Source: Colwellia maritima
Lineage (GTDB): Bacteria; Pseudomonadota; Gammaproteobacteria; Enterobacterales; Alteromonadaceae
Direction: 5' to 3'
NCBI RefSeq assembly: GCF_022669015.1
Contig: NZ_JAKKSL010000001.1
Location: forward strand, 1,222,059 to 1,286,058
DNA length: 64,000 bases
Shown here: piece after piece, positions 3,753 through 58,831 of the stretch
How the letters are laid out: every line of letters starts with the position of its first letter
Numbering within the stretch: position 1 is the stretch's first letter
Notes under the pieces: model-generated
What the model was told of the DNA's origin: nothing
The model's database searches: none
What the model saw: only the letters and a program-made list of their open reading frames with translations
Translations under genes and position numbers: made by a program

Positions 3753-5084
3753 TTATCGATTGCTAATTAAAGCTTGATAGGCATAGCCACTACTTTTTAT
3801 TGTTCTAACTTGGCTTTTATAATCAACATAAACAATGCCGAAGCGTTTTAAATAACCTTCAGCCCATTCAAAATTATCCATCAAACTCCATGCAAAATAG
3901 CCTTTTATATTAACGCCTTGCTCTATTGCATCGTTAACAGCATTAAGATGCTGTTGATAGTACTCTACTCGAACAGTGTCATTAACAACACCATCAATAA
4001 TTTTGTCGTCTGTCGCAGCCCCATTTTCTGTAATATATATAGGGGGTAGTGGGTATTTTTCATTGAGTGAAACCAGTAATTCACTGAAAGCTTTAGGGTA
4101 TATTTCCCGGACCAATATCTGTACGTGGTTCAGGGGGGGATTTGAACAAATCGCGCTGCACTATCCGCTTGGTAGATGGCGCGTGTATAAAAATTAATAC
4201 CCAAAAAATCAATGGGGTGGGATATTATTTCCATATCACCCTCTTGTATTTCAGGATGATGATCCGCAGGTAATTGTGCCAATATGTCAGGGTAGGCAGC
4301 ATCAAAAATTGGTTTGATATACCATTGGTTAAAATAATCATCTGCAAAATCGCTAGCAATTTTGTCGTTCGCTGAATTAGACGCGGGGTAGCAAGGGGTA
4401 AAATTTAGTACTATGCCATTTAACGTATTAGGGCTGTTTTTTGCGAGCACTTTCATTGCTAAACCGTGAGCAAGTAATAGGTGATGAGCTGACTTTCTAC
4501 CAAATTCTTCACCAACTATTCCTGGAGCATGAACGCCTACTTCATAACCTAAAAATGAACTGCAAAAGGGTTCGTTTAGTGTTGCATAAGAGTATACACG
4601 ATCACCGAATGCTTGGCTGATTAGGTCGACATAATCCTGGAATTTATAAGCAGTTTCTCTATTTAACTTGACCTCCTTCATCTTCTAAATGCTGAGGTAA
4701 ATCCCAGTGATATAGGGTTACGAAAGCTTTAATGTTTTTACTTTTTAGTTCATCAAGAATATCGATGTAAAAGTTAACGCCTTCTGGGTTTAACGTTCCA
4801 GATTGTGTGATAACTCGTGGCCATGATATAGATAAACGATACGCATCAACACCTAATGACTCGATTAAGGCGATATCTTCTTTCCATAAATTATAGTGAT
4901 CACAGGCAATTAATCCATTAGATCCATCAATAACTTTATTTGGTGTATTACAAAAAGTGTCCCAAATACAGGGCAATCGATTTTTTGCGCCACCTTCTAT
5001 TTGAAATGAGGCAGTTGCGACGCCATAGATGAAATCACCTTTTAGCATAGTAGAATCTAGGGGCAAAGAAATTTTGGCTGTCAT
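3753..5084 (-). CDS. GH1 beta-glucosidase, broken by two indels
   Basis: Cytoplasmic retaining beta-glucosidase of glycoside hydrolase family 1, reconstructed as about 443 residues. The N-terminal part (FIYGVATASFQIEGG, then CIWDTFCNTP) is in one frame. The acid/base motif (ATLNEPFCSS) is in the second frame and the nucleophile motif (YITENGAA) in the third. No signal peptide is visible. The first break, near 4675, replaces an expected Gly-Gly-Trp (GGTTGG) by GGTCAAG. The second is in a run of seven G at 4134-4140, where one more base restores the frame. Both catalytic glutamates survive. It is first in the operon with the GPH symporter and lies behind LacI-type operators. It is probably functional in the organism. 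Confidence 0.88.
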
Positions 5085-5123
5085 TGAATATACCTATTAC
5101 TTAAACTTGTTTTTATGATTTTT

Positions 5124-5137
5124 TGAAAGCGCTTACA
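5124..5137. promoter_or_regulatory. LacI-type operator upstream of GH1
   Basis: TGAAAGCGCTTACA, a near-palindrome centred on CG, 40 bases upstream of the GH1 start. It matches four other sites in the sugar locus. Assigned to the LacI repressor encoded at 978-1982 by proximity. Confidence 0.75.
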
Positions 5138-5174
5138 AAAAATGTTGATTAAACAGTGAAGATAGTTTTTAATG

Positions 5175-5200
5175 TAACAATGTAAGCGCTTACATTGTTA
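5175..5200. promoter_or_regulatory. Perfect 26-bp LacI-type operator
   Basis: A perfect 26-base palindrome whose core is TGTAAGCGCTTACA (5181-5194). It lies between the divergent GH1 and FHS-transporter genes. With the site at 5124 the spacing centre to centre is about 57 bases, suited to cooperative binding or looping. The 285-base gene-free stretch 5085-5369 otherwise shows only AT-rich promoter sequence. Confidence 0.82.
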
Positions 5201-5369
5201 AGGTTAGTGCTTTCTCTAACCGAGGTCAACTAATTTCATCAGTTTTTAATTTGAGCTTTTTTAATTATTTGAAATGAGCGCGTAGAGAGCTAGCAACCTG
5301 TGCTATTTAATCAAGCAAATAGGTATAGCGTATGTAAATTAATAATAAAATAAACGTAAAGAGGCTCAT

Positions 5370-6630
5370 ATGGCAATACATGCAAGCTCAGGTACTGTTG
5401 AACAATTAGCGAATAATCAAGGGCAAGAGAATTACCGTTTTGCATTGACATCGTTAACGTCTTTATTTTTTATGTGGGGTTTTATTACTTGTCTAAACGA
5501 TATATTAATTCCTCACTTAAAAGGGGTGTTTGATTTATCTTATAGTCAAGCCATGTTAGTGCAATTTTGTTTTTTTGGTGCTTACTTTCTCGTATCTTTA
5601 CCTCTTTGGTGCGATTGTAAAAAAACTGGGATATCAAAAGGGTATTGTTATTGGGCTGTCTGTAGCTGCACTTGGCTGTTTATGTTTTTATCCTGCTGCC
5701 GCTTTACATAGTTATCCTGTGTTTTTAATGGCATTGTTTATTTTGGCTAGCGGCATCACTTTACTTCAAGTGTCTGCTAACCCTTATGTCAGTATGTTAG
5801 GTGATGCAAAAACGGCTTCTTCGCGTTTAACTATGACACAAGCATTCAATTCTTTAGGGACAACGGTCGCCCCATTTTTCGGTGCATTTTTAATTTTGAA
5901 TCACGCGGCAGAGTCAATGTCTGATCAGGCTTCTGCAGAGGCGGTACAACTTCCTTATATTTTTTTAGCCATAATGTTACTGATGTTGGCTGCAATTTTT
6001 GCGTGGTTAAAACTACCGGATATAGCGACAACAAATACGAATCATACCGATATCAGTACCGATACAGGTAGTGCTTGGGGCTATAGTCACTTGGTGTTAG
6101 GTGCCATTGGTATTTTTGTATATGTTGGGGCTGAAGTCTCAATTGGTAGTTTTTTAGTCAGTTTTTTTGCTGAACCATCTATTGCAGGATTAGCAGAATC
6201 TGAAGCGGCAAAATATATAGCTTACTACTGGGGAGGCGCTATGATCGGACGATTCATTGGTGCTGCTCTTATGCAGAAGGTTGATGCGGGTAAATTGTTA
6301 TCTTTTAATGCCTCGATAGCTTGTTTACTTATTTTAGTGGCGACGTTTTCATCGGGCAGTGTTGCCATGATAGCCATTTTAGTCGTGGGTTTTTGTAATT
6401 CTATTATGTTCCCAACCATTTTTAGTCTTGCAATTAATGGCTTAGGAAAACATACCGGCCAAGCTTCAGGGATTTTATGTTTAGCCATTGTGGGTGGTGC
6501 AATTATCCCTATTTTTCAAGGGATTCTGGCTGATAATGTTGGTATTCAACACTCATTTATATTACCTATTTTGTGCTATTTATTTATCACTTATTACGGT
6601 CTGATAGGCTGTAAAGTTAGAAATAATTAG
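5370..6630 (+). CDS. FHS-family glucose/galactose:H+ symporter, one indel
   Basis: Major facilitator of the fucose-hexose-H+ symporter family (FucP/GluP group), about 420 residues and 12 membrane helices. Supporting motifs are [19 protein letters not shown] in helix 1, [13 protein letters not shown] in the helix 2-3 loop and the family mark [12 protein letters not shown]. The frame changes near 5610: CCTTTTGGTGCG is expected and CCTCTTTGGTGCG is present, one extra base. The start has an AGAGG ribosome site. It is co-directional with, and nearly adjoins, the GH3 gene, so it probably imports the monosaccharide that the GH3 releases in the periplasm. Confidence 0.88.
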
Positions 6631-6679
6631 CATGTTAGCGAATTCTCCAATTGATAATAAAACCTTAAGAGGTAATATA

Positions 6680-9309
6680 ATGAAATATAATAAGTTAATT
6701 CAATTAAATGCTAAAAATAGCACCAACAAAAAAATCAATACAGGGATATTTTATTGCGTTTTTTCAATGATCGTTTTTGGTTGTAATGATGTGAATCATG
6801 ATGAAAATTCACTTAATACAATTACTAACATAAAGGCACTTGACGATAGCTCAGTAGAGCAATCTACTATTGATGTTTGGCCAAAGCTCGATTTAGCGGT
6901 AAAAAAAGATACAGGTATTGAAAGCAAGATAGCACAGTTACTTGCTACTATGACGTTAGAACAAAAAATAGCCCAAATGATCCAACCTGAAATTCGTGAT
7001 ATTAGCGTTGATGATATGCGCAAGTATGGATTTGGCTCTTATTTAAATGGCGGAGGCTCTTTTCCTAATCACGATAAACATGCAACACCCAATGATTGGA
7101 TCAATCTTGCAGAAGCAATGTATCAAGCTGCAATTGATGACAGTCTTGATGGCGTTAGTATTCCTACCATGTGGGGCACTGATGCTGTTCATGGACACAA
7201 TAATGTTATCGGTGCGACTTTATTTCCGCATAATATTGGTTTAGGTGCGGCAAATAACCCTGCGTTAATTGAACAAATAGCAGCAATCACAGCAACAGAA
7301 GTGATGGTAACAGGTATCGATTGGGTGTTTGCTCCTACCGTGGCCGTTGTACGTGATGACAGATGGGGACGAACGTATGAAGGGTATTCTGAAGATCCGG
7401 AAATAGTAAAATCTTATTCATCAGCTATTGTAAAAGGTTTACAAGGAAGCGCTGATAAAGATTTTCTTGGCGATCAGCGTGTTATTAGCACGGTAAAACA
7501 TTTTGTTGGTGATGGGGGAACTGATGGCGGCGATGATCAAGGTAATAATATTGCATCAGAGCAGGTGTTGGTTAATATTCATGCCCAAGGTTATGTAGGC
7601 GGATTAACAGCAGGGGCGCAATCTGTAATGGCTTCTTTCAATAGTTGGCATGGCAAAAAAAACCATGGCAATAAATATTTACTGACTAATGTATTGAAAG
7701 AACGTATGGGGTTTGATGGATTTGTTGTGGGTGATTGGAATGGCCATGGACAAGTTAAAGGTTGCTCAAATGAAAGCTGTCCACAGGCTGTTAATGCAGG
7801 GCTTGATATCTTTATGGTACCCACTAATGCATGGAAGCCGTTGTATGAGAACACGATTGCCCAGGTGAGAAATGGTGAAATCGCCGAGTCTCGTATTGAT
7901 GATGCAGTAAGCAGAATTTTGAGAGTAAAGTTTAGGGCGGGTCTCTTTGACAAACCTAGCCGGACTAAGCGTGCATTATCAGGAAAAACAGAGTTAATTG
8001 GTGCGATTGAACATAGGCAAGTTGCGAGTCAGGCAGTGCGAGAATCACTTGTTTTACTCAAAAATAAAAATAATATTTTGCCATTGTCTGGTAATCAAAA
8101 AGTTCTTGTTGCGGGCGATGGCGCTGACAATATAGGTAAACAATCAGGTGGTGGACTATTACTTGGCAAGGTACTAATAATAATAATACTGATTTCCCTG
8201 GTGGCAGTTCTATTTATGATGGCATTGTGCAGCAAGTAAAATCTCAAGGCGGCAGTGTTGAATTAAATAGTGATGGAAATTTTAAGGAAAAGCCAGATGT
8301 AGCTATTGTTGTTTTTGGCGAAGAACCTTACGCAGAAGGCGTAGGAGATATTAAAAATTTAGAATATCAACAAGGGGTTAAACAAGACCTTGCGCTATTG
8401 AAGCGATTACAATCTCAAGGAATTCCTGTTGTTTCATTGTTCATCAGTGGTCGCCCTATGTGGGTTAATACAGAGCTTAATGCCTCTGATGCTTTTGTTG
8501 CTGTATGGTTACCCGGCTCTGAAGGTGCTGCTATTGCTGAGGTGCTATTTACCCAAGCCAATGGGGAAATTCAGTATGACTTTGTGGGAAAACTATCATT
8601 TTCATGGCCTAAAAGTGCCAACCAAACGGTGGTTAATCGCTTTGACACTGATTATAAACCGTTATTGCCTTATGGTTTTGGGTTAAGTTACGGTGATAAA
8701 AATGTATTACCCGACTCCTTAGAAGCGACTAGCGTTCAGCATTCTGATAGTTTGCAGGCTATCACGCTTTTTAAAAATTCGATTAAAGCACCATGGAAAA
8801 TGACAATTGCAGATACTGACTCTACTCGTGTGATGACTAGTAGTGTTGTTGAAAATAATGCGCTTTATTTGCGAACTATTGACCGCAATGTTCAAGAAGA
8901 TGCCAGAAGGGTTTTCTTCAAAGGGGAAGAAAGCGGACAGGTTGCGTTTACTAGCCAATATGCAACTGACTTTACCCAATACGTAAAAGCTCACTCAACA
9001 CTTTCATTGACGGTTCGTACTAACCAGAAGCAAAATTTGCTGAAGCAAGGAATCGTTAATATTGCCATGTTATGTGGTGAACAGTGTCAAGGAGTTGTTG
9101 ATATAACGTCTGCGCTGACAGAATTAACAGCGGATGAATGGCAGACGTTGAGTATAGATTTACAGTGTTTTGAAAAAAATGGCGCTGATATCAGTAAGGT
9201 AAAAAGCCCCTTTGTATTGTCGTCAACTGGACCTTTAACTATGGATTTCTCAGAGGTTGTTATAAAACCTAATAGCGTTAACTCTGCAACCCTAAACTGT
9301 CAGCAATAA
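6680..9309 (+). CDS. GH3 exo-beta-glucosidase lipoprotein, one indel
   Basis: Family 3 glycoside hydrolase of about 876 residues, closest in layout to bacterial 1,4-/1,3-beta-glucan exohydrolases of the ExoP type. I chose the ATG at 6680, which has an AAGAGG ribosome site and gives a signal peptide ending in a lipobox (VFGC), so it should be anchored in an envelope membrane. Catalytic-domain motifs are PTMWGTDAVHGHNNV, TVKHFVGDGGTDGGDDQG and the nucleophile region GFVVGDWNGHG. The second domain (RESLVLLKNKNNILPLSG) is interrupted near 8153: GGTGGTTGGACT is expected and one T is missing. The C-terminal 180 residues form a separate ExoP-like beta domain. It should release glucose from the non-reducing end of beta-glucans. 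Confidence 0.88.
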
Positions 9310-9363
9310 TATTGTCAGCTGTAGTACTGTCAGTATCATTGCTTTTGTTTTTGTTGAACGAAG

Positions 9364-9403
9364 CACCATTATTAGCTATCACCTTTGAGAGTTAATAATG
9401 GTG
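9364..9403. terminator. Hairpin between convergent GH3 and halogenase genes
   Basis: Eleven-base perfect stem (CACCATTATTA / TAATAATGGTG) with an 18-base loop, in the 126-base gap between convergent genes. There is no strong T-run on either side, so its role as a terminator is only likely. Confidence 0.4.
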
Positions 9404-9435
9404 TAAATTTCAGATAATAAAAAGCGTGTTGGAAG

Positions 9436-10913
9436 CTATGATTTGCAATATTGTTGTATGAAGTCGGCATGACTCGGTAGCTTTTCTACCGCATTAGCAA
9501 TAGACGCTTTCAAGCTACTCATAAAGTGATTTAATTCTTTCTCGTTCATGATATCTGCGATCTTATGGTATTGCGTTGGCATAACACCTTGACCAAGCAT
9601 GACCTGAGTCCACGAATCAACACGGAAAATATCACCATCATCCAAAAACACCCGCCCAGTATCTTTAAATAATTGTATTTTATGTGCTAGAGAGTTAGGG
9701 ATTTCCATGTTTTGGCAATGTAACCAAAAATTACTGTCTTCATATCCGGGTCGCCTTATAATGCAATATGATAAAATCACGCACAGCGTTCAATTCGGAG
9801 TCGAGCTTATTATTATATTCATCAATGGCTGATTGATAGATGCCCTCAAACGGAAATAAGCGTAATAATCTGATAATGCCAGACATAATTAAATGAATAC
9901 TGGTTGATTCAAGTGGTTCAATAAAGCCGGCTGATAAACCTAAAGCAACACAGTTTTTATTCCAACCTTTGCGGCGTCTACCTGTGTTAAACTTAATCAC
10001 TCGGGGCTCTGTGAGTACTTTACCTTCAATGTTACGGGTTAAGGTCTTTAGTGCTTCTTCATCACTGCAATATTTACTACAAAAAACTAAACCATTACCA
10101 ACACGATTTTGTAGGGGGATTTTCCATTGCCACCATTTTTATGGGCAATGGAGCGAGTATAAGGTAAGGGATCCGATAGTGTTTCAGTTTGTACCGCTAT
10201 TGCACTATCGCAAGGTAGCCAATGTGACCAATCATCGAAGCCTGTATGTAGTGCTTGTTCAATTAAAAGGCCTCTAAAGCCAGTACAATCAATAAAGAAG
10301 TCGCCTTCAACTACTTGTCCTGATGCTAAGGTCAGTGAACTGATTTTACCCGTTTTATTATCCTTATTTACCTGCTTAATCTTTCCTTCAACGCGGGTTA
10401 CGCCAAGATTTTTACTAAATTCTCGTAAATATTTAGCATAGAGAGTGGCATCAAGGTGGTACGCATAATTGATAGGTGTGTTCTTTGTTAAGGCGAACTT
10501 TTGTGCTTTTGCAGCTTGCAGCTCGTAACAATACTCTCCAAAATCACTTTCAATACCGTTGCGTAAACCATGTAACCAAAAGTGATGAAATTCACCACCC
10601 AACATTCTTTGCCTGTTACGCCAAATGAGTGAATATAATCTTTACCTTCTTGTCCCCAGTTTTCAAAACCGACACCCAGTTTAAAGGTGGCATTTGTGGT
10701 GCGCATCAGTTCTTGTTCGTCAATACCGAGTAATTTATGAAATGTTCTTATGGGGGGGATAGTGGCTTCACCTACACCTACCGTGGCAATTTCATCTGAT
10801 TCAACCAAGGTTATGTTCAACTTTTTACCTAGAAGCTTCGAGAAGGCGGCCGCCGCCATCCGGCCAGCTGTTCCACCGCCGCCAATAACAATATTTTGTA
10901 CTTTATTATTCAT
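9436..10913 (-). CDS. Flavin-dependent (tryptophan-type) halogenase, three indels
   Basis: About 492 residues after repair. It has the FAD motif [16 protein letters not shown] and the catalytic lysine in NATFKLG (Lys79 of RebH by my alignment). It also has a canonical WQWKIP halogenase signature, visible once the frame is corrected at about 10125, and EPLESTSI around the second catalytic residues (Glu346/Ser347 of RebH). Breaks are at about 10600 and 10125, each explained by TTGG read as TGG, and at about 9755 (one extra base). No flavin reductase is nearby. It follows halogenase A by 80 bases in the TonB-receptor operon. The substrate is unknown: tryptophan or indoles are known for the family, but a role on a polysaccharide-linked aromatic is equally possible. 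Confidence 0.85.
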
Positions 10914-10993
10914 AATTCGATCCTTATTACTAATTTTTACTGGCTACTTTGTTTTTAGTTTGTTGAGTAATGATCTATTGCTTGGCAAGCCAG

Positions 10994-12487
10994 TCAGATA
11001 TTGATTTTTTTATGTGCAACCACTGCAATTGCTTGTTCAGCCGGTGAGTTAACTTTGATCTTAGTTGGGGTGACGCGTCTGTTTGTCTGAAAGCGCATAC
11101 CATAAAGCACATATTGATAGCTTGCCGATGGGAAGACTTCTTCATTTTGAAAGAAATCATAACGACTAGGCGGTTGGTATTGCCATAGTTTAATAAGAGT
11201 TTTAAGATCTTCACTAATACTTTCGGGCTTTTGGTTATCAAGCCAATACTTTGAGTCTTCACGTTTACTTAAAACATAATGTAATTTTAAAAAGTCGATG
11301 ATGCGATTCCAACGATAAATAAATTTTTCATTGAAACGGTTAGCAATGATGTCCATATGCTGACGAGTAACGGGTAATTCATCCGTTATCATGGTAGATG
11401 CTAACTCGATCATAGCTAAAGCTGAAGCTTCTAGCGGTTCAAGAAAACCTGCAGACATCCCAATAGCGACACAGTTTTTATGCCAAAACTTTTCTCTATG
11501 ACCTGGTTCAAATGTTATTTTTCTAGGTGTGAGTAATGCTGCTTGTGCTTCGCCAATTGACTGAGTAAGGTATTGTTTTAATGCTTGTTCAGCGTCAACA
11601 TCATTTGTATGAGCGCTAGAATAGGTGTATCCCACACCACGTCGGGTTTGTAATCCTATATCCCAAATCCGGCCTGAATCTTGGGCTGTGGATAATGTTG
11701 TTGAATTTATTGGGGCATCTTTAGTTGGGTAGGGTACTTGTACAGCAAGCGCAGAATCATTAAATAAAATATGCTTTTTGTTGATAAAGTTAATTTTATA
11801 ATGCTTTCCTAATAATAGTGAAGCACTCCCAGTACAATCAATAAATAGATCGCCTTCAATATTGCCGTGTGCTTTAGTACTTATGGCAGCTATATCATCA
11901 TTTTCGGCAGAGATAATGTCATCCATATGGTCAACAATGTGTCGAACGTTTAATGTTTTGATACAGTGCTTTTGTAAGAGAGCAGCAAATTTCATTGCGT
12001 CAAGGTGGTATCCATAATTTGTTACGGCGGCGTAATCTGGAGTGGCTTCTTGTTTTGGTGCTAAACCTGCTTGACAAACATGGCTTTGTATATTGACAGT
12101 GTCTGCAAATGATTGTTGAAAGTGATTGGCTTGCCAAGCCGCGTGTAAATCAACTTGACCATAGCCATTTGGTGTCATAAAAGGGTGATAGTAATAATCA
12201 TCAGGGCTGCCGGTTCTCCAACCAACAAATTTTGAGCCTTGTTTAAATGAAACGTCACATTGTTGGATAAACTCTTTTTCGTTTATGCCTATTTTTTCTA
12301 ACGTATTACGCATTGATGGCCAGGTACCTTCGCCAACACCAATACTATTCACTTCAGGGGATTCAATTAGCGTTATCTGAATTTCACTGGCTGAATCAAT
12401 ACAGTGTTCGGCTGCTATACTACCGGCGGTAATCCATCCTGCGGATCCGCCACCAACAATGACAATTTTTTTTATAGGTTTATCCAT
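10994..12487 (-). CDS. Flavin-dependent halogenase-like protein A
   Basis: Intact 497-residue member of the tryptophan halogenase family. It shows the FAD-binding IVGGGSAGWITAG, GVGEGTWPSMR, the catalytic-lysine segment VSFKQGSKF, and SAGFLEPLEASAL. It departs from true halogenases in two places. The WxWxIP signature reads RIWDIG, and the serine after the EPLE glutamate is alanine. Such receptor-linked relatives are common in Alteromonadales and Caulobacterales but their substrates are mostly unproven, so monooxygenase-like or other chemistry cannot be excluded. It sits second in the operon, 166 bases behind the TonB receptor and before halogenase B. Confidence 0.88.
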   Translation of the reverse strand: MDKPIKKIVIVGGGSAGWITAGSIAAEHCIDSASEIQITLIESPEVNSIGVGEGTWPSMRNTLEKIGINEKEFIQQCDVSFKQGSKFVGWRTGSPDDYYYHPFMTPNGYGQVDLHAAWQANHFQQSFADTVNIQSHVCQAGLAPKQEATPDYAAVTNYGYHLDAMKFAALLQKHCIKTLNVRHIVDHMDDIISAENDDIAAISTKAHGNIEGDLFIDCTGSASLLLGKHYKINFINKKHILFNDSALAVQVPYPTKDAPINSTTLSTAQDSGRIWDIGLQTRRGVGYTYSSAHTNDVDAEQALKQYLTQSIGEAQAALLTPRKITFEPGHREKFWHKNCVAIGMSAGFLEPLEASALAMIELASTMITDELPVTRQHMDIIANRFNEKFIYRWNRIIDFLKLHYVLSKREDSKYWLDNQKPESISEDLKTLIKLWQYQPPSRYDFFQNEEVFPSASYQYVLYGMRFQTNRRVTPTKIKVNSPAEQAIAVVAHKKINI

Positions 12488-12585
12488 GTAATCTCCTACC
12501 TACGGGTATTACTAATTCGTTACCTTTATTCTTAGTGCCCGAGCAACAAGTTTATTCATTGGTATAAATTATTATGTGTCAATCG

Positions 12586-12615
12586 ATAAATGCCGTGCAA
12601 GTGCACGGCATTTAT
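12586..12615. promoter_or_regulatory. Strong intra-operon hairpin between TonB receptor and halogenase A
   Basis: Thirteen-base perfect stem (ATAAATGCCGTGC / GCACGGCATTTAT) with a four-base loop, 39 bases past the receptor stop codon. There is no T-run after it on the minus strand, so it is more likely an RNA-stabilising or processing hairpin that raises receptor mRNA over the downstream genes than a full terminator. Confidence 0.6.
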
Positions 12616-12653
12616 AAAGGTAATTATCTAACTAAATATCTAGCTAAATAAAC

Positions 12654-15637: not shown

Positions 15638-15680
15638 GTTTATCTCCCACCAATTTACATGTTTTATAATTATCTGTTGT

Positions 15681-15694
15681 AGTAAGCGCTTTCA
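15681..15694. promoter_or_regulatory. LacI-type operator near TonB receptor start
   Basis: AGTAAGCGCTTTCA, a degenerate copy of the TGWAAGCGCTTWCA site, 44 bases upstream of the receptor start. Confidence 0.6.
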
Positions 15695-15738
15695 TTAATT
15701 ATTTAGTATCGTGTTTAAGGTGATAAATTACAAACAAA

Positions 15739-15752
15739 TGAAAGCGCTTACA
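15739..15752. promoter_or_regulatory. LacI-type operator in divergent receptor/GPH promoter region
   Basis: TGAAAGCGCTTACA, identical to the site at 5124. It lies 58 bases centre to centre from the 15681 site, nearly the same spacing as the pair upstream of GH1. Confidence 0.75.
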
Positions 15753-15959
15753 TTTAAGTTAGAGTATTAAATGATTAAGGTCAATAACTATTTTTATAAT
15801 TATACAAACCAATGAATAATCTTACGCCAAATAAGTAAGTTTCTTTAAAAGCCAATAAAAATTTATGTAGTAATAAGTCATTTAAAAACAATTGGTTGAT
15901 TGTTTTTAAAAATTGTTTTTGTAAATTTACATTGTGTTTATAAAAAATATGAATTATTT

Positions 15960-15973
15960 TGTAAGCGCTTACA
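15960..15973. promoter_or_regulatory. LacI-type operator upstream of second GPH transporter
   Basis: Perfect palindrome TGTAAGCGCTTACA, identical to the core of the 5175-5200 site and about 120 bases before the transporter start. The 454-base gap 15638-16091 holds these three operators and AT-rich promoter sequence; I see no gene in it. Confidence 0.8.
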
Positions 15974-16091
15974 TTTTATCGTTATAAGGATAAAATATTG
16001 AATTATTCATTATTTTATCCTTATAAGAATGCGTTTTAAATTGAAGCATAAAAATTTTACTATTATCTATGATTCAATAAGGGATTTATTC

Positions 16092-17469
16092 GTGAACAGT
16101 AATCTGCGTTTAAAAGAGAAAGTTGCTTATGCTTGTGGTGACGTTGCATCCAATTTTTATTGGCGTGTGTTTGATGTGTTTTTATTTATTTTCTATACCG
16201 ATGTTTTCGGTATCTCAGCGGCAGCTGTAGGTACCTTAATGTTAGTCACACGGTTAATTGATGCTTTTTCTGATCCGTTAATGGGGGCGTTAGCCGATAG
16301 AACTAAAACCCGTTTTGGCAAATTTAGGCCTTATCTTTTGTGGGGGATTATTCCTATTGTTGCTGCGGGTGTTTTAACTTTTACAGTACCCGATCTTAGT
16401 GAAGATAATAAATTGATTTGGGCTTATGGCACCTACATTTTTATGATGTTGGCCTATACCTTTATTAATGTGCCATACGGCGCATTACTTGGTGTGATAA
16501 CGAGCGATACGCAACAACGTACTACACTCACTAGTTTTCGGTTTATAGGCGCTTTTTCAGGGGGAGCCTGGTTGCTTATTTAACACCGGAATTAGTTCTA
16601 TATTTAGGACAAGGGAATGAAGCATTAGGTCGGCAATTAACCATGGGGCTGTATGGTTGTATTTCAGCGCTGTTATTTACACTGACATTTTATGGTACTA
16701 AAGAACGTATTTCACCACCACCAGATCAAAAAACACCAGTGTTACAAGACATTAAAGATCTAGGGCATAATAAACCTTGGTTAGTGTTATTTGGTTTGGC
16801 GCTCATCATCATGATCACCATTTCGTTACGAGCAAGTTCAGGGACATTTTATTTTAAATATTACACACAACGACCTGACTTGATTGGTAGTTTTGCAATG
16901 GTATACATGATCGCTTTAGCTATAGGGGCGGCATCGACACCCTTGTTAACACGATATGTAGATAAACGTCGTTTGTTGATTATTTTAATGAGTATAGTCG
17001 CTAGCTTATCTACCGCATTCTATTTTGTTCCTAGAGACAATATTGCGTTGATGTTCGGACTGCAAATTATGATTGGATTGGCGTTAGGACCAAAATCACC
17101 CTTGGTTTTTTCAATGTATGCAGATACCGCTGATTTTTCTGAATGGAAAACAGGTAGAAGAGCAACGGCAATGATATTTTCTGCTGCTGCTTTTGCACAA
17201 AAATTAGGAGGAGCACTTGCGGGGGCAACAATAGGTGGTTGCTTGCATCACTGGGTTATGTGGCTAACCAAATACAAACAGGCGCATCAGAGCAAGGCAT
17301 AGTGCTTTTATTGACTATTATTCCCGCGGTTTTTGCTGCATTAGCTATTCCTCTCATAATGCTGTATCCATTAGACAACAAAACCTTAACAGATGTGCAA
17401 AGAGGTTTACATCAAAGAAAAAATACAGTGGTAAAACAGGATGAAAACGAGGTTATGAATAATGGGTAA
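16092..17469 (+). CDS. GPH-family glycoside:cation symporter 2, two indels
   Basis: Second MelB-like carrier, about 459 residues. I prefer the GTG at 16092 (NSNLRLKEKVAYACGDVASN), which has AAGGG eight bases upstream; an in-frame ATG at 16029 would add 21 unusual residues. Family marks are VTRLIDAFSDPLMGALADRT, RFGKFRPYLLWG and YADTADFSEWKTGRRAT. One base is missing at about 16568 (GCCTTGGTT read as GCCTGGTT) and another near 17235 (GGTTGGTTG read as GGTGGTTG). Its stop codon overlaps the GH94 start by eight bases, so transport and phosphorolysis are coupled: it probably brings an intact disaccharide or its aldonic acid into the cytoplasm. Confidence 0.88.
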
Positions 17470-19847
17470 TATGGTTAATACAGAGAATAAATCACGTGTG
17501 AAAGTTGAACTTGATTGCCCGATTAAAATGCCAAAAGCCAGTGGTTTTTTGTGGAATAAAAAGATGGTTGTACAAGTGAATTGTCGTGGCTATGTAAATT
17601 CACAGTATATGCAGCCTGAGCCAAGAAAATACTCTTATGCGCCTAACATGGAAGAAAAAACTTTTATTCAGCCAGAGCATAGCTATTTTACTCACCACCC
17701 GGGACGTTTTTTCTATATTAAAGATGAAGATCTTGAACAGTGCTTTTCAGTACCTTATGAGCCAATGAGAAAAAAACTTGATAAGTTTAGTTTCGTTCAA
17801 ACTGCTAGTGAAATTTACTGGTTGATTGAGCACTTAGAGCTGAGCATAAAAATTTCCATAAGCTTAAGTAAGCAAGATATTGTTGAACGTTGGTCTTTAT
17901 CAGTTAAAAATATGAGAGCTTCGGGTGGACAGCGAAATATCAGTATTTATCCCTATTTCACTATCGGTTATATGTCTTGGATGAATCAATCAGCCTGTTT
18001 TAATGAACAACTAAACGCGATTGTTGCTTCGGCAATAACACCATACCAAAAAGTAGAGCAGTATTTTAAAAACAAAGACTTGAAAGAAAAATCATTTTTC
18101 ATCGCCGACAAAAAACCAACAACTTGGCATACTAATCAAGCAGCCTTCGAAGGGGAAGGAGGCTTACATGCACCAGACGCATTAAAGACACTTACACTAT
18201 CTAATGATGAAGCCAGATATGAAACACCGGTTGCGGTTTTTCAATACCGAGAGTCATTCGGTGAAAATGAAGGTATCGATTATCAATTTTTATTTGGTCC
18301 CGCTAAAGATGAGTTAGAAATAGCGACATTAGCTAAGCGTTATTTTGGTGCTGAAAAAGCAAAACAGGCACAACAAGTTTATGATACGTATATTGCTAAA
18401 GGGCAAGGGTGTTTAGCTGTCAACACAGGTGCCGCTGAATTTGACGATTTTGTTAACCATTGGTTGCCTAGGCAAATGTATTATCATGGCGATGTTAATC
18501 GCCTAAGTACGGATCCTCAAACGCGTAACTATATTCAAGATAATATGGGCATGTGTTATATCAATCCTAATATCGCGCGGGATGCTTTTATTTTAGCATT
18601 ATCACAGCAACAAGTTAGTGGCGCGATGCCCGACGGTATTTTACTTCATGAACAAGCGGAACTTAAATATATTAATCAAATCCCTCATGCGGATCATTGT
18701 GTTTGGTTACCGATATGTTTGGCAGTTTATTTAAATGAGACGGGTGACGTTAGTTTGTTATCAAGCAATATTTCATTTGCCGATTCTAATAAAACCAAAA
18801 CCTTCAGTGAACACATAATGCTTGCGCTAGATTGGTTATTAGCGGCTACAGATCACAGAGACTTAAGCTTGATAGAGCAAGGTGATTGGTGTGACCCTAT
18901 GAACATGGTTGGTTACAGAGGTAAGGGGGTTTCAAGTTGGTTGTCTCTTGCTACGGCATACGCGTTGAATACATGGTGCGATTTGTGTGATGACTATAAT
19001 ATCAATATTGATGTGAAAAAACTCATGGATTACCGACTAGCTGCTACAACCATAAATAAAGCGGTTAATTCATATTTGTGGGCCGACAACTGGTTTGCTC
19101 GAGGCATAACTGATGAAAACCGTGTTTTTGGTACCGTGAAAGATAACGAAGGACAAATATACCTAAATCCACAAAGCTGGGCTATATTAAGTGGTGCCGC
19201 ATCACCAGAACAGCAACAGCGGATGATCAAGGCAATTACTAAACAATTAATGACGCCTTATGGCGTGATGATGTTAGCACCAAGTTATACCCACATGATT
19301 GAAGACATCGGTCGAATTACACAAAAGCATCCTGGTGTTTCAGAAAACGGCTCTGTTTATAATCATGCCGCCATTTTTTATGCTTACAGTTTATACCAAA
19401 TAAATGAAAATGATTTAGCCTTTGATGTATTAAAAAAAATACTACCTGCTATAGACGATGCTGATCAAAGCGGACAGCGGCGGTTTTTGTGCCTAATTAT
19501 TACCGCGGCGCTTATCATCAATATCCAGATCAAGCAGGTCGTTCAAGTCAGTTATTTAATACGGGTACACTGGCTTGGCTGTATCGTTGTTTAGTCGAAG
19601 AGTTGTGTGGTTTAAAAGGGGGAATGGTGTTTTGCATGTTGCCCCTAAATTACCCCGTTGTTTAAACAGTATATCTGGGCAGCGATTATTTCGTGGTGCA
19701 AAACTCATCTATGTTATCGAAAAATCTAACTCAATAGAAAGTATCAAAACCTATTTAGATGGTGAATTGATGCTAAATAATCAATTAGCCAATATTAAAG
19801 CAGATAAAACGTATCAAGTGCGTATTTTGGTGCCTGATAATGACTAG
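17462..19847 (+). CDS. GH94-type disaccharide phosphorylase, two indels
   Basis: About 795 residues, the size of GH94 inverting phosphorylases (cellobiose, cellobionate, chitobiose and related). It has an N-terminal beta-sandwich, then an (alpha/alpha)6 barrel with [15 protein letters not shown] and [15 protein letters not shown], where the catalytic aspartate region normally reads GDWND. C-terminal [18 protein letters not shown] and [20 protein letters not shown] appear after correcting single-base losses near 19483 and 19615. No signal peptide, so it acts in the cytoplasm and would give glucose-1-phosphate. The gene directly downstream, overlapping by eight bases, is gluconokinase. A phosphorylase that also released gluconate (cellobionate phosphorylase) would explain that, but the specificity is inferred from context only. 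Confidence 0.8.
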
Positions 19848-21249: not shown

Positions 21250-23852
21250 ATGACGATAAAAGTAAAGCAGATATTAAAACCGATTAACGTAACCTTTTTA
21301 GCTATGTTAACTTTAGTTATGTTAGTTACGGCGTGTCAAAATGACTCAGTACAAACAGTACAAACAGTACAAACAGTACAAACCAACAATACACAAAGCA
21401 ATCGTCTAGCCTCAGTTGAAACAGATGTTACCCGATTATTGAATGAGATGACTTTAGCCGAGAAAGTATCCCTTACACATGCAAGTGGTAAGTTTCATGT
21501 TAATGCGATAGAGCGTCTTGGTATACCAGAAATGTGGCTTTCTGATGGTCCCCATGGTGTTCGCCATCAAATTCAAAAGCACAGTTGGGCATCGGTGGTT
21601 GGACTGATGACTACTCAACTTATTTGCCACATCTTACTTCAGTTGCCGCAAGTTGGGATGTTGAAATAGCCCGATTACATGGACAAGTATTAGGCGCAGA
21701 AGCACGAGACAGAAAAAAAGATTTTATTTTGGGTCCGGGTGTGAACTTAGCAAGATTACCACTTTATGGTAGAAATTTTGAATATATGGGCGAGGATCCA
21801 ATTTTAGCAGCTAAATTGGTTGTTCCTCAAATTAAAGCGATTCAAGAAAACGATGTAGCAGCAACCGTTAAGCATTATGCACTCAATACACAAGAATTAA
21901 ATCGAACAGGTGTTAACGCAAAACCAACAGAGCGTACTTTAAGAGAGGTGTACTTACCCGCATTTGAAGCAGCCGTTAAAGAGGCGGCGTGTTAGGTATG
22001 ATGGGGTCGTATAACCAATATTTTGGTACTAATGCTAATCAAAGTAAACATTTAGTGAGGGATATTCTGAAAGGGGAGTGGGGATATCAAGGGGTATTAC
22101 TCACCGATTGGAATGTTGACATTAATACCTATGATGCGGCGATGCATGGTCTTGATCTCGAAATGGGAACCGATGTTGAAGATTACCAGGATTATTTCTT
22201 TGCCAAGCCGTTATTAACAATGGTGCAAGCGGGAAAAATACCTGAATCGGTTGTTGATGATAAAGCTCGACGATTATTAAGAGTGCAACATACTATTGGT
22301 ATGTATGATAACAATAGAAAAATTGGCAACAGAAATACTAAGACTCACCAAGCTGCAGCGCGTAAAATAGCCGCTGAAGGTGTTGTGTTACTTAAAAACA
22401 AGGTTGTTGACTCAACACCTGTGTTGCCTTTAAACATAACTAAAATAAAGAATATATTAGTCCTAGGTCCTAACGCAGATAAAAAACATGGTACGGGTGG
22501 TGGTTCTTCTGAAGTTAAATCTTTGTACGAAGTGACACCGTTAGCAGGGTTGAAAGCAGCGTTGGGTGATAACGTCAGCATTAATGTCATGAGAGCGAAA
22601 AGTAGTGAGTTATCTCCTATTGCTAGTGATTACGTTGCCGGCAGACATTGGACAGGTACACCTGCGTGGAATATTTCCTATTATGCTGAGCAAGCACGGA
22701 AAACATTAATTGAAGAATCTTGGATTGTTGACTCACAATTTAAACCAAAGAAACAATTATCACCCCAACATATCACGATGAAGGCTAAAATTAAGCCGTT
22801 AGCCAGTGGTATTCATCATCTACATGCTGAAGTGCAAGGAGATTTTCAATTAAAAATCAATAATGAATTAGTGATTACCTATCAAGAAGGTATAAGCAGT
22901 AAATCAGCACTAAACTATGATATTTCGCTAGAGGAAAGTGAAGAATATGCGTTTGAAATTGAATATGATGGGCAAAAACATTTTATGTTGGGTTGGAACG
23001 CGCCAGGTGAATTGTTTACTAGTGAAACAGACTATTTAACGGCAGCAAAAAAAGCGGATGCAGTTATCTATTTTGGTGGCTTGAGTCATGCCGATGATAG
23101 AGAGTCAATTGACCGCTCAAATATGAAGTTACCCAATTCGCAAGATGAAATTATTGCAAAACTACTTAAGGTTAATAAAAAAACGATTATTTTCTTAGTT
23201 GCCGGCTCTGCTGTTGAAATGCCGTGGGTTGAGCAGGCTAATGCGATTGTTTGGGGATGGTATGGTGGTATGGAAGCGGGTAATGCTTTTGCTGATGTGT
23301 TAACGGGGAAAGTTAATCCTAGCGGTAAAATGCCAATTACGTTACCTGTTCGTCTTGAAGATACTGCGCCTATTGCACTGAACGATTATACTGCAAAAGA
23401 GAGTTTATACACTGAAGGGGTTTTTATTGGTTACCGTTGGTTTGAGCAACAAAAAATAAAGCCATTATTTAGCTTTGGCCATGGGCTATCTTTTACACAA
23501 TTTGATATTAGTAACATTAAACTATCAAAAAATACCGTAGCGCATAATGACGATATTTTTGTCACTGCCACAGTTAAGAATATAGGGACAGTTCGGCGCA
23601 GAAGTGGTACAACTTTACCTACGTGATGTTGAGTCAAGTGTTTCAAGACCGATAAAAGAGTTAAAAGGTTTTGCGAAAGTTATGCTGCAACCCAAAGAAA
23701 CTAAAATTGTCAGGTTTAAGTTAACCACGCGCGATTTATCTTTTTGGGATGAAAAAACAAATGATTGGCTAGCTGAGCCTGGAGAGTTTGAAGTGTTACT
23801 GGGTAATTCATTAGACAATATTAGCCATCGTGAGAAGTTTATTTTGCAATAA
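21250..23852 (+). CDS. GH3 beta-glucosidase lipoprotein with PA14-like insert, three indels
   Basis: About 867 residues. The signal peptide ends in a lipobox (LVMLVTAC), then a VQT-repeat linker, then the GH3 barrel ([39 protein letters not shown], nucleophile region [10 protein letters not shown]). In the second domain an insert at about residues 470-590 ([20 protein letters not shown]) looks like a PA14 domain, which often gates the GH3 active site for oligosaccharides. A C-terminal fibronectin-III-like domain ([11 protein letters not shown]) closes it. Breaks are near 21595 (GGTTGG to GGTGG), 21983 (GGG to GG) and 23592 (GTTGGC to GTTCGGC). The two GH3 enzymes differ in architecture, so they likely take different linkages or chain lengths. 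Confidence 0.88.
21349..21384 (+). repeat. Four 9-bp tandem repeats coding (VQT)4
   Basis: Unit GTACAAACA repeated four times (the last ends in C), in frame in the linker just after the lipobox of the second GH3 enzyme. The copy number may vary by slippage without breaking the frame. Confidence 0.9.
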
Positions 23853-42946: not shown

Positions 42947-42977
42947 TTACGCAGAATTTATATTGTACGAGGCAATA

Positions 42978-44860: not shown

Positions 44861-44887
44861 ATAGCTCGATAAACTCCTAGGAACACT

Positions 44888-46973: not shown

Positions 46974-47000
46974 TAGCCATTAAAACTTAGAGAGTTCTAC

Positions 47001-48281: not shown

Positions 48282-48291
48282 TAATTTGCCC

Positions 48292-49868: not shown

Positions 49869-49924
49869 AATTAAAAGGTTATTATTTATTATTAGTATTC
49901 ACTTTAATATAGTATGATGTTATT

Positions 49925-49941
49925 TGTCAATTGTTGACAAT
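49925..49941. promoter_or_regulatory. Inverted repeat TTGTCAA-N3-TTGACAA, probable operator
   Basis: Perfect seven-base arms, 57 bases upstream of dctP and 127 before iorA. The form recalls operators of GntR-family regulators of organic-acid genes, but no such regulator is encoded in this window. Confidence 0.5.
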
Positions 49942-50067
49942 TTTGGGTGTATTGCTATTATCATCACACTCGGTATTGGCTAATGATCAATGACGGTAAA
50001 CACGATTATTGAAACAGATTTTTTTAGTTGTTTCAAAAAACACAACTAAGTAAGGTAATTACATAAC

Positions 50068-52799: not shown

Positions 52800-52858
52800 G
52801 TATTTAGGATAAGTATTCAAGATAAATACTCAAAAAAAGTAATCTACATAATAACTAA

Positions 52859-52893
52859 AAAGCCAATATTATCGTTAAATAATATTGGCTTTT
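52859..52893. terminator. Bidirectional terminator between iorB and gltD
   Basis: Stem AGCCAATATT / AATATTGGCT (52861-52890, extended by two A-T pairs), flanked by A4 on the left and T3 on the right, in the gap between convergent genes. Confidence 0.85.
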
Positions 52894-52917
52894 ATATTAG
52901 CTTATAACTTAAAAGTG

Positions 52918-54360
<1,443 letters not shown>

Positions 54361-54371
54361 TTATCAATTAT

Positions 54372-57300
54372 TTATTGTGCTTGTACACGTAATTCAGCAC
54401 TTGAGCGACTACGATGACCTAATAAGGTTTTAACATCCGTTGCTGTTGGCTTAATTAATTTGAATAATGGTGCGAACTTATCAAAATCTTGTAAAATTTC
54501 TTGTGCGCGTAGGCTACCCGTTTCTTCAAGATGATGATTGATAATACCTCGTAAATGCTCTTTATGGATACTGAGTTCATCAATCGCTAACATTTCAATA
54601 GACTCAGGATTGATACGTATATCTAAATCGCTTTTTGAATCTAAAACATAGGCAAAACCACCCGTCATACCTGCACCAAAGTTAACGCCAATATCACCTA
54701 AAATAGTGACAATACCACCTGTCATGTATTCGCAGGCATGGTCGCCTGTTCCTTCCACAACGGCACTACAACCTGAGTTACGTACGGCAAATCGTTCTCC
54801 TGCACGGCCACAGGCATATAATTGACCGCCAGTTGCCCCGTATAAACAGGTGTTACCCATAATCATTGTTTTATGGCTTTGGTACTCAACGCCTTTTGGT
54901 GGCATAACTGTTATTATTCCACCTGTCATACCTTTGCCTACGTAGTCGTTAGCATCACCCGTAAGTTTAAGGTGCAATCCACCAAAGCATTCCATACACC
55001 AAAGCTTTGACCTGCAGTGCCAGATAAATGAAAAGTAATTGGTGAAGCCGCCATTCCTTGATCGCCATGTTGTCGAGCAATTTCACCTGATAAAGTTGCC
55101 CCAACAGAACGATCGGTATTTTGTATGGTGAATCTGAATTCCCCACCTTTACAATGTGCAACGGCCTCATGTGCAATAGCGACCATTTTCTGATTTAGCT
55201 GTCCTTGGTCAAACGGCTTGTTTGCTTCTGTTTGATGAAGCGCCGTATCATCTGCAGCGACAACCGGTGCGATAATCGGCGATAAATCTAATTTTTGTTG
55301 CTTGGCACTAATGCCTTCAATTTGTGTTAGCAAGTCTACTCTACCAATAATGTCGGTTAAACTTTTAACGCCTAAATTAGCAAGGATCTCACGTACATCT
55401 TGAGCAATAAATTTAAAATAATTCATCACTTGATCAGGTAAGCCTTTAAAAAATTGCTCGCGTAACACTTCATCTTGCGTAGCTACACCGGTTGCGCAAT
55501 TATTTAAGTGGCATATGCGCAAAAACTTACAACCTAATGCCACCATAGGTGCTGTACCAAAGCCAAAACTTTCTGCACCTAATATGGCAGCTTTAACAAT
55601 ATCGACCCCGGTTTTTAACCCACCGTCTACTTGTAAACGTACTTTATGGCGTAAACCATTAGTTACCAAGGCCTGATGTGCTTCAGCTAAGCCTAATTCC
55701 CAAGGGCAACCTGCGTATTTCACTGATGTTAAGGGGCTAGCGGCAGTACCACCGTCATAACCCGATATAGTAATAAAATCAGCATATGCTTTGGCAACAC
55801 CTGCGGCAATAGTTCCCACACCAGGGCCAGACACTAACTTAACAGAAATAACCGCTTTCGGGTTGACCTGTTTTAAATCAAAAATAAGCTGTGCTAAATC
55901 TTCAATTGAATAAATATCATGATGCGGAGGTGGTGAAATAAGTGTGACACCAGGTACTGAATAGCGTAACTTTGCAATTAATGGTGAGACTTTATCACCG
56001 GGCAATTGGCCACCTTCACCAGGTTTTGCACCTTGCGCTATTTTAATTTGTAACACATCAGCATTGACTAAATAGTGCGGTGTTACCCCGAAGCGTCCTG
56101 AGGCAATTTGTTTGATACGTGAATTTTTAACGGTACCAAAGCGGCGTTCGTCTTCACCACCTTCACCTGAATTTGAACTGCCACCTAAACGATTCATTGC
56201 AATAGCAAGTGCTTCATGGGCTTCTGGGCTTAATGCACCTATTGACATGGCAGCAGAGTCAAACCGTTTAAACATTTCATTGCTACTTTCAACCTGTGAA
56301 ATATCAATCGCCTCACCATCATTTTTTAACACTAATAAATCTCGCAGCATTGCGATAGGACGGTTATTGACTTCGTCGGCAAATTTACGGTAGTCATCGT
56401 AATTACCGTTTTGTACGGCACGTTGTAAGTAGTTCACCACATTTGGGTTAAAGGCATGATATTCTTCGCCGTGAACATATTTCAGTAAACCGCCATGTGA
56501 CATTTTTTGATGGGGTAAGAAAGCTTTACGAGCAAGATTAATATTGTCTTGTTCAATATCAGAAAAATCAGCTCCTTGAATTCGGCTAGGTAAATCGCTA
56601 AAACATAAATTCATTATGTTTTCGTTTAAGCCAATAACTTCAAATAAACCAAAGACAACGGTAACTAGCAATCGTTGAAATACCCATTTTTGAGAGTATT
56701 TTCAATAAGCCTTTGTTGATACCTTCGCGATAGTTAGCGACTGCATCACGAGCACTTAATTTAATTTGCCCTTGCTCCACTAATTGTTCAATAGTTTCAA
56801 AGGCTAAATAAGGATAGATAGCGGTGGCCCCTAATCCTAGTAACACGGCATATTGATGTGAATCGCGTACTGAAGCCGTTTCTACAATAATATTAGAGTC
56901 GCAGCGTAGTTGTTGATCTACCAAACGCTTTTGTACTGCACCCACCGCCATTGCGGCAGGAATGACTAATAATCCTTTGTGAATTTGTCTATCTGAAAGT
57001 ACTAAAATAACCGTACTTTTATCTCTGACTAAATCTTCAGCTTCATCACATAAACGAATAATTGCGGCTTCTAAACCTTCTTCGTCATCGTATGTTAGTG
57101 TTAATGTGTCAGAACGGTAGTGAGCCGGGTCAAGCTCACGCAGTTGTTTTAAACCGGTGTACATTAATACGGGAGTGGAAAAGAGCATACGATCCGCATG
57201 GCCGGATGTTTCGTTAAAGACATTGTGTTCACGACCAATACAGGTACCCGACGACATAACGTAGCGCTCACGCAACGGATCAATAGGTGGATTGGTTACT

Positions 57301-58831
57301 TGGGCAAATTGTTGTCTGAAATAATCATATAGCACACGTGGTTTACTTGAGAGCACAGCCATAGGGGTATCATCACCCATTGAGCCAGTCGCTTCTTGAC
57401 CATTTTCTGCTAGTGTTTTAATAACTTGATGAATTTCTTCATAGCTGTAATTAAACATTTTATGGTATTGATTCATCTCAATATCAGAGAAAACGCGTAC
57501 CCCTATTTGATTTGCTTCTAACTCGTCAAATGGAATTAAACGGCGAACATTTTTGTTAAGCCATTCACGGTAGGGGTGACGACATTTTAATTCATTATTG
57601 ATGTCGTTTGAGTTGAAAAGCTTACCTGTATAGGTGTCAAGGGCGAGCATTTCGCCGGGACCAACACGACCTTTTTCAACCACTTCATCTTCGCCGTAAT
57701 CCCAAATACCTACCTCTGAGGCAAGGGTAATGAAACCATTACGGGTAATAACATAGCGGGTCGGGCGTAAGCCGTTTCTATCTAAATTACAGGCAACATG
57801 GCGACCATTGGTCATAACCACACCTGCCGGGCCGTCCCATGGTTCCATGTGCATAGAGTTAAATTCGTAAAAGGCGCGTAAGTCATCGTCCATTAAGTTA
57901 CTGTTTTGCCATGCCGGCGGCATTAATAAACGCATCGCGCGGTATAAATCCATACCACCGGCAAGAAAAAGTTCAAGCATATTGTCTAACGAAGAAGAAT
58001 CCGAGCCTGTTTGACCAACAAAAGGAGCGGCATCATGTAAATCGGGTAATAGCGGCGATTTAAAACGGTATGTACGTGCCCGTGACCATTGACGATTACC
58101 ATTAATGGTATTGATTTCCCCATTATGTGCTAGGTATCTAAAGGGTTGCGCTAAATACCATTGTGGTGATGTGTTTGTTGAAAAACGGTGAAAAACACAA
58201 ATAGCACTTTGCATACGAATATCGGCAAGGTCTAAATAGAAGTTAGGTAAATCTATTGGCATCATTAAGCCTTTATAGATAGTAACCAAACACGACAAAC
58301 TGGCAACATAAAATACATCGTCAGTAATACGTTTTTCTGCACGGCGACGTGCCATATATAAGCGTCGTTCTAGATCACGATTTCGCCAACCTGGAGGTGC
58401 ATCAACAAATACTTGCTCAATTTTTGGCATGTTGTTGATGGCGGCATCACCTAATACTGAGGTGTCGATAGGTACTGTTCGCCGACCGATAAGGGTCAAA
58501 CTTTCGTTAGCAAACTCTTCTTCTAGTATTTTTTTAGATAATGCAGCAGCAACAGGATCGGGGTTTAAAAAGATCATGCCTACTGCATATTTTTTACCAA
58601 GTTTCGACCATTATCTTCAGCAACAGCCCGGAAGAAAGTATCTGGTTTTTGTAACAATAAACCACAACCATCACCTGTTTTACCATCAGCAGCGATACCA
58701 CCTCGATGTTGCATGCGATCTAAGGCCGAAATAGCGGTTTTAATAAGTTTATGGTTGGTTTCACCATGTTGATGGGCGATTAAGCCAAAACCACAATTTT
58801 CGCGTTGAACGCTATGATCATAAAGCTGCAT
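54372..58831 (-). CDS. gltB: Glutamate synthase large subunit, three indels
   Basis: About 1,486 residues, normal for GOGAT large subunits. A short pro-sequence precedes the catalytic Cys ([11 protein letters not shown]) of the amidotransferase domain. Central and FMN domains follow ([53 protein letters not shown]) and the 3Fe-4S cysteines [18 protein letters not shown]. The C-terminal beta-helix is [13 protein letters not shown]. Breaks are near 58571 (CTTGG for probable CTTTGG), 56655 (TTTGG region) and 54983 (GCTTTGGTGG for GCTGGTGG). Three independent breaks in a central nitrogen gene argue for sequence error. It is transcribed with gltD; the LysR gene lies 226 bases upstream on the same strand. 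Confidence 0.93.

What the first reader, a model, noticed from the sequence alone, without database searches (positions are those of the whole stretch)
4130..58600. Frame breaks cluster on TTGG/CCAA: a motif-specific indel signature
Repairing broken genes by protein continuity gave me about 34 indels. Some 20 fall on or beside TTGG. Loss of a T: 8153, 10125, 10600, 16568, 17235, 20573, 21595, 24487. Gain of a base: 5610, 13690, 20367, 23592, 37765, 46890, 48015. Multi-base changes: 4675, 26275, 26338, 48655. At 13825 and 54983 GCTGG appears as GCTTTGG. TTGG or CCAA occurs by chance about once per 128 bases, so this is far from random. Compensating pairs inside dctM, the sugar porter and a TonB receptor rule out simple gene decay. 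The pattern looks like systematic mis-calling at a motif, as happens with modified bases in nanopore reads. It may thus betray an undescribed DNA modification. Some GGTTGG copies (in obgE, iorB) are untouched, so context or partial modification matters.
Basis: partly seen in the sequence, partly recalled or inferred. Interest (0 to 1): 0.8.

Follow-up and report, generated by a model that had tools for sequence, protein, structure and literature searches.

The report
GCTGG miscalled across a Colwellia genome

Summary
The frame breaks are real features of the assembly and are motif-driven, but the motif is GCTGG/CCAGC; TTGG is one of its misread products. GCTGG occurs 6 times in 464 kb against 571 expected from relative G010. 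TGCTGG occurs 23 times genome-wide against 2,188 in G010. Of 206 aligned G010 sites 1 is kept, the lowest of 485 pentamers. Breaks favour Ala-Gly, Pro-Ala and Gly-Trp, which GCTGG/CCAGC encodes. In the 5 copies each of 16S and 23S rRNA, 49 of 50 site-copies are altered (one 23S site left out as natural), and copies disagree with each other at 9 of 10 sites. So this is systematic miscalling, very probably of modified DNA in nanopore reads. [quoted passage not shown] The best candidate writer is a LlaJI-like cassette elsewhere in the genome with two adjacent 5mC methyltransferases; that link is inferred.

The parts
10864..10868 (.). one of only two GCTGG/CCAGC copies left in the window
   Evidence: position; 2 in 64 kb; the G010 density predicts about 79
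19176..19180 (.). the other remaining GCTGG/CCAGC copy in the window
   Evidence: three references, shift +1; none of the three reads GCTGG itself
   Evidence: three references, shift +2, none with GCTGG itself
17234..17234 (+). frame break at Gly-Trp; two of three references have GCTGG/CCAGC
21595..21595 (+). frame break at Ala-Gly-Trp; two of three references have GCTGG/CCAGC
23594..23594 (+). frame break at Ala-Gly; two of three references have GCTGG/CCAGC
   Evidence: three references, shift +2, none with GCTGG itself

Best explanation
The breaks are consensus sequencing errors. In the living cell the asymmetric pentamer GCTGG/CCAGC is modified at nearly every copy, probably on both strands. 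The basecaller was not trained on that mark and turns the site into GCCGG, GTCGG, GTTGG, GGCGG, CTTTGG or forms shorter or longer by one to three bases; whatever polishing was done did not repair it. By estimate some 6,000 sites per genome are wrong, about 30% of them with a length change, which gives the false frame breaks. Shown here: the genome-wide loss of the word, its presence at breaks, and the rRNA evidence. Inferred: that the reads were nanopore, that the cause is a base modification, and that both strands carry it. Inferred with about 0.6 probability: the writers are the two adjacent 5mC methyltransferases M1 and M2 of a LlaJI-like cassette at G000:C1 about 766.0-772.6 kb.
For: GCTGG 6 against 571 expected in 464 kb, every hexamer listed that contains it 0-3 copies; TGCTGG 23 genome-wide against 1,786-3,354 in 7 other genomes, while the backward control (1,280 in G000, 1,125 in G010) is ordinary. 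Retention 1 of 206 sites, lowest of 485 pentamers (median 0.35, next lowest 0.11); gap rate 24 of 206, highest of 485 (median 1.2%). Dipeptides AG 37 against 2.7, PA 21 against 1.3, GW 11 against 0.4 lead an open ranking at 129 breaks. 16S: 20 of 20 site-copies altered; 23S: 29 of 30; copies disagree at 3 of 4 and 6 of 6 sites. The altered 515F-site pattern was found in G000 only, among 394 genomes of the order. Same motif with amplification proof in Listeria. Enzyme: the 3 PF00145 places in G000 are this one tandem pair, none in G010; G280 holds M1-M2-R1-R2 in line with unsplit genes and G309 holds the M1-M2 pair; LlaJI uses two 5mC enzymes on an asymmetric pentamer (PMC1459862, parts 1-2 of 6 read).
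Against: No reads, platform or record name are available, so nanopore and modification are not shown directly. G280 (M1 80% identical) and G309 carry the methyltransferase pair yet have normal GCTGG counts; this fits if they were sequenced otherwise, but gives the enzyme link no support. G309 shows no match to G280's R1 or R2 in the 20 kb taken, so the pair does not always travel with them. The target of M1/M2 is unknown. 39 of 129 breaks were not GCTGG-compatible under my loose test; some look like homopolymer or alignment effects. rRNA copies also differ at some columns away from the motif. The Listeria errors were mainly mismatches, with few indels, unlike here. By recall, ordinary 5mC is usually handled well by basecallers, which would favour another mark.
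Confidence: 0.88

Rival explanations
1. The mark is real but written by another enzyme, for example an adenine methyltransferase acting on CCAGC like Neisseria ModD1, the BREX PglXI on contig C4, or the N4/N6-type methyltransferase in a Tn7-like element on contig C1.
For: CCAGC is given as ModD1's motif. G000 has a split PglXI in a BREX set and a 448-aa type II methyltransferase beside TnsD and TnsE. The commonest 16S change reads A to G on the CCAGC strand, as a misread adenine might.
Against: None of the 4 PF01555 hits looks like a type III Mod; the best has 41.5 bits and is a PglXI piece. A one-strand mark should leave about half the reads correct, hard to square with 49 of 50 rRNA site-copies altered (inference). 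BREX motifs are usually six bases (recall). PF02086 and PF07669 were not searched, so other adenine enzymes may exist.
Confidence: 0.3
2. The genome truly lost GCTGG and its genes are truly broken (restriction avoidance or gene decay).
For: Restriction avoidance can lower a motif's count (recall).
Against: About 95- to 110-fold loss; changes at conserved 16S sites in all 5 copies, with a net loss of 3 bases at one site in 3 of 5; rRNA copies disagree with each other at 9 of 10 sites; avoidance would not make frameshifts.
Confidence: 0.02
3. An assembly, polishing or file-handling fault without any base modification.
For: It could also be motif-exact.
Against: Products vary between copies of the same rRNA site, unlike a text or software substitution; the same motif behaved so in Listeria and was cured by amplification.
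Confidence: 0.04
4. A TTGG-specific modification, as first proposed.
For: TTGG is about two-fold enriched at breaks.
Against: TTGG/CCAA is more frequent in G000 than G010 predicts (4,569 against 3,981), not depleted; GTTGG retention, 141 of 286, is above the median.
Confidence: 0.01

Closest known systems
Modification-mediated nanopore errors at GCTGG in Listeria monocytogenes R20-0026 (Chiou et al. 2023, PMC10687267)
   Same: Identical pentamer; thousands of sites; errors remained after polishing; lineage-specific.
   Different: There the errors were mainly mismatches with few indels and were proved by whole-genome amplification; here about 30% of rRNA site-copies change length, another phylum, no reads. 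No enzyme is named there for GCTGG in the parts read; here a candidate is.
LlaJI restriction-modification system (Lactococcus; PMC1459862)
   Same: Two 5mC methyltransferase genes followed by an R1 and an R2 gene, the latter McrC-like with a PD-D/EXK centre; LlaJI reads an asymmetric pentamer.
   Different: LlaJI reads GACGC/GCGTC; the target of the present cassette is not known; its McrC-like protein is longer (832 aa).
Neisseria ModD1 (CCAGC)
   Same: Same pentamer.
   Different: ModD1 is an N6-adenine enzyme (title of a reference cited in PMC13248682); no type III Mod was seen among the PF01555 hits here.
Purine/pyrimidine ambiguity errors in Klebsiella (PMC11610573, passages seen)
   Same: Motif-linked native-DNA nanopore errors, mostly towards C or G.
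   Different: Other motif (RACG/CGTY); sites ambiguous between two bases; the word deletion does not occur in the main text.

Membership tests
Modification-mediated nanopore consensus errors | errors confined to one motif genome-wide | tested here: met
   (one outlier pentamer); 39 of 129 breaks remain unassigned
Modification-mediated nanopore consensus errors | true sequence at the site is the intact motif | tested here: met
   rRNA sites identical in all 7 copies of G010; coding contexts. Inferred from relatives, not from reads
Modification-mediated nanopore consensus errors | reads are native nanopore reads and errors vanish after amplification | not testable with these tools
   no reads held; genome unnamed
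LlaJI-like restriction-modification system | two adjacent 5mC methyltransferases | tested here: met
   M2 appears split in the assembly
LlaJI-like restriction-modification system | McrB-like R1 with its own N-terminal domain | tested here: inconclusive
   two pieces in G000 match the 579-aa R1 of G280 at 32% and 60%, but the AAA_5 match of that R1 is just below its cut-off (21.8 against 22 bits) and the G000 pieces have no Pfam match
LlaJI-like restriction-modification system | McrC-like PD-D/EXK R2 | tested here: met
   DUF2357 + PDDEXK_7 in L204:2005-4503
LlaJI-like restriction-modification system | asymmetric pentamer target methylated on both strands | not testable with these tools
   target of this cassette unknown; GCTGG is inferred
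Type III Mod (ModD1-like) CCAGC methyltransferase | strong PF01555 match in one Mod-type protein | tested here: not met
   4 PF01555 hits; the best is 41.5 bits, a PglXI piece
BREX type 3 | BrxF, BrxC, PglXI, BrxHII, PglZ, BrxA together (set recalled) | tested here: inconclusive
   L193: BrxF, BrxC, PglXI, PglZ, BrxA matched; the helicase matches a BrxHI model best and a BrxHII model less well. No tie to GCTGG

The most novel reading that the evidence does not exclude
The mark on GCTGG is not plain 5mC or 6mA but an unusual modification on both strands, placed at nearly every copy, which makes nanopore consensus fail with multi-base changes; the same or a related system explains the unsolved Listeria GCTGG case, and the cassette named here writes it.
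Probability: 0.15. Interest if true: 0.8.

Novelty: new member of a known kind. Interest (0 to 1): 0.5.

Why it matters
A species-representative genome by estimate carries some 6,000 systematic errors at one word, including its 16S and 23S genes, so its gene models, its 'pseudogenes' and perhaps its contamination score mislead. The effect also works as a detector: a pentamer missing from an assembly points to a fully modified motif without raw data. It gives a published but unexplained motif (GCTGG in Listeria) a second host and a testable enzyme pair.

Tried and rejected
Rejected: TTGG as the motif; gene decay or true motif avoidance; a second miscalled motif: apart from GCTGG no pentamer stands out in retention. 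Tried without result: whether the mark matters as part of the E. coli Chi octamer (recalled); GCTGGTGG is near its expected count in relatives (12 against 15.0; 16 against 12.0; 21 against 18.3). A search of solved structures with the R1 N-terminal piece gave one insignificant hit; with M1 it gave 49 sequences, cytosine methyltransferases or relatives by name, none informative on the target. Relatives carrying the M1-M2 pair (G280, G309) show no GCTGG loss. Among loci from other genomes of 15 kb or more the ratio to expectation was 0.6-1.15; the 0.6 is G254 (9 against 15.0), which has a more distant pair. Phage search with M1 found 9 of 50,697 records, plasmid search 63 of 72,556, none informative on specificity. 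Paper searches made: GCTGG + methyltransferase + recognition; CCAGC + methylation + motif + restriction-modification; LlaJI; GCTGG + nanopore; Listeria + ST1081 + methyltransferase; statements on novelty rest on these alone.
Full report
Setting. The window is G000:C1:1222059-1286058 of a 5,232,771-base genome in 9 contigs, 97.86% complete, 5.71% contaminated. So the genus is inferred; the genome itself is unnamed and its sequencing platform is not given.

Checking the breaks. I aligned relatives' proteins to the DNA with a frameshift-aware dynamic programme: 243 alignments, 220,314 covered bases of 464 kb, of which 40,501 in the window. Of 189 break events, 186 were kept after an identity filter and merged into 132 clusters, 30 of them in the window.

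TTGG is not the cause. TTGG/CCAA lies near 45% of 186 break events against 21.7% of control codons, so it is enriched about two-fold. But TTGG is not missing from the genome: 4,569 copies against 3,981 expected from relative G010.

GCTGG is. Pentamer counts in 464 kb of G000 against 460 kb of G010 show one extreme outlier: GCTGG/CCAGC, 6 against 571, and 726 scaled from other relatives; its listed hexamers have 0-3 copies. In one search, loci of at least 8 kb from other genomes had 0.7-1.3 of a Markov expectation, the two own loci 0 and 0.08. Genome-wide, TGCTGG occurs 23 times in G000 against 2,188 (G010), 2,467, 2,950, 3,095, 1,786, 3,354 and 2,755 in seven other genomes, while the backward control is ordinary. 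In DNA alignments 1 of 206 G010 sites is kept in G000; among 485 pentamers with at least 60 sites the median is 35% and the next lowest 11%; GCTGG also has the highest gap rate, 24 of 206 against a median of 1.2%. Part of the 206 changes are ordinary synonymous divergence.

The breaks follow GCTGG. In an open ranking of dipeptides at 129 breaks (3 clusters near reference ends dropped), Ala-Gly (37 against 2.7 expected), Pro-Ala (21 against 1.3) and Gly-Trp (11 against 0.4) lead: these are what GCTGG and CCAGC encode. 67 of 129 breaks are strictly compatible against 3.8% of control codons; 90 of 129 loosely, against 19%; 39 are not compatible. One of the six contexts of the loose test, [SPTA]-Ser, was not enriched (5 of 129 against 6.2%). 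Some of the 39 look like homopolymer indels or poor alignment.

Ribosomal RNA. The 5 G000 16S copies differ from the 7 G010 copies at all four GCTGG/CCAGC sites (20 of 20 site-copies), including the primer 515F site, which by recall is conserved across life; at the fourth site three copies are 3 bases shorter. In 23S, 6 sites by 5 copies give 29 of 30 altered; a seventh site reads ACTGG in all five copies and was left out as natural. Counted by script, 34 of 50 site-copies change without a length change, 15 with one, and 1 is intact. Copies disagree with each other at 3 of 4 sites in 16S and 6 of 6 in 23S. They also disagree elsewhere: 2 reference-invariant columns in 16S, and in 23S a block where one copy (L180) carries an inserted stretch plus columns 1096, 1424 and 1619 (the printed list was cut at 80 columns). 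The altered 515F-site pattern matched in G000 only, among 394 genomes of the order; genomes without an assembled 16S gene could not match.

Scale. 571 per 464 kb gives about 6,400 sites per genome, and with the rRNA share of 15 in 50 about 1,900 length-changing errors (estimates).

Why modification. Products vary between copies of the same site, and the word is altered in both orientations of the consensus. Chiou et al. 2023 (PMC10687267; [quoted passage not shown] In that set indels were few, unlike here. A Klebsiella study (PMC11610573; passages) reports the same class of errors at another motif. CCAGC is also given as ModD1's motif in Neisseria (PMC13248682, passages).

Candidate writer. 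An asymmetric pentamer needs two recognition events if both strands are to carry cytosine marks (inference). G000's only PF00145 places are one tandem pair on the minus strand of C1 (M1 355 aa; M2 split); G010 has none. Next to them lie an R1-like protein in two pieces and an 832-aa McrC-like DUF2357 + PDDEXK_7 protein. G280 has M1-M2-R1-R2 with each gene in one frame; identities to G000 are 79% for M1, 68-69% for M2, 32% and 60% for the R1 pieces and 38% for R2. G309 has M1 and M2 at 92% and 89% to G280 but no R1 or R2 match in the 20 kb taken, even at E 10. The layout of G000 and G280 is that of LlaJI, which has two 5mC enzymes and reads GACGC/GCGTC (PMC1459862, parts 1-2 of 6 read). The M2 break in G000 lies beside an Ala-Gly of G280's M2; by eye the first R1 piece ends in a stretch where G280 has an Ala-Gly. 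So the cassette seems to be misread at its own mark. M1 homologues at E 1e-40 or better occur in 9 of 394 genomes of the order, own included. Against the link: G280 and G309 do not lack GCTGG, and no target is known for this pair.

Other methyltransferases: a BREX set with a split PglXI on C4, an N4/N6-type enzyme in a Tn7-like element, and PF02384 (type I-like) genes. PF02086 and PF07669 were not searched. They remain rivals.

Verdict. The kind is known and the motif was reported once; the host and the proposed enzyme pair are new as far as the searches named under Tried and rejected go.

Noticed in passing
L193 (G000:C4:148001-168000), 4163-16815: A BREX defence set, probably type 3 (BrxF, BrxC, PglXI, a BrxH helicase, PglZ, BrxA matched) in which BrxC and PglXI, and by ORF layout the helicase, appear split, plausibly by the same miscalls.
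   Followed up: partly
L194 (G000:C1:358000-374000), 5249-15893: A Tn7-like element (TnsD, TnsE) with a 448-aa type II methyltransferase, a GHKL-type ATPase and a protein weakly like BbrUII/HgiDII restriction enzymes.
   Followed up: partly
L234 (plasmid p275D of Lactococcus lactis) 5548-9181; L223 (G309) 10004-17348: The closest plasmid relatives of M1 and M2 (59% to G000's M1, 56% to G280's M2) sit side by side next to an NgoFVII-type nuclease, and G309 has the pair without R1/R2, so the same methyltransferase pair seems to travel with different nucleases.
   Followed up: partly
L204:8829-10425: A HipA-like kinase and a helix-turn-helix gene directly upstream of the M1-M2 cassette.
   Followed up: no
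L180 (G000:C1:1011800-1017200): One of the five 23S copies carries an inserted stretch that the other four lack.
   Followed up: no
G000 whole genome: The 5.71% contamination may be inflated by genes split through false frame breaks.
   Followed up: no
window 978-42108: An apparent sugar-use region: LacI regulator, MFS sugar transporter, GH3 and GH94 enzymes, TonB receptors, and a tryptophan-halogenase-like protein.
   Followed up: no
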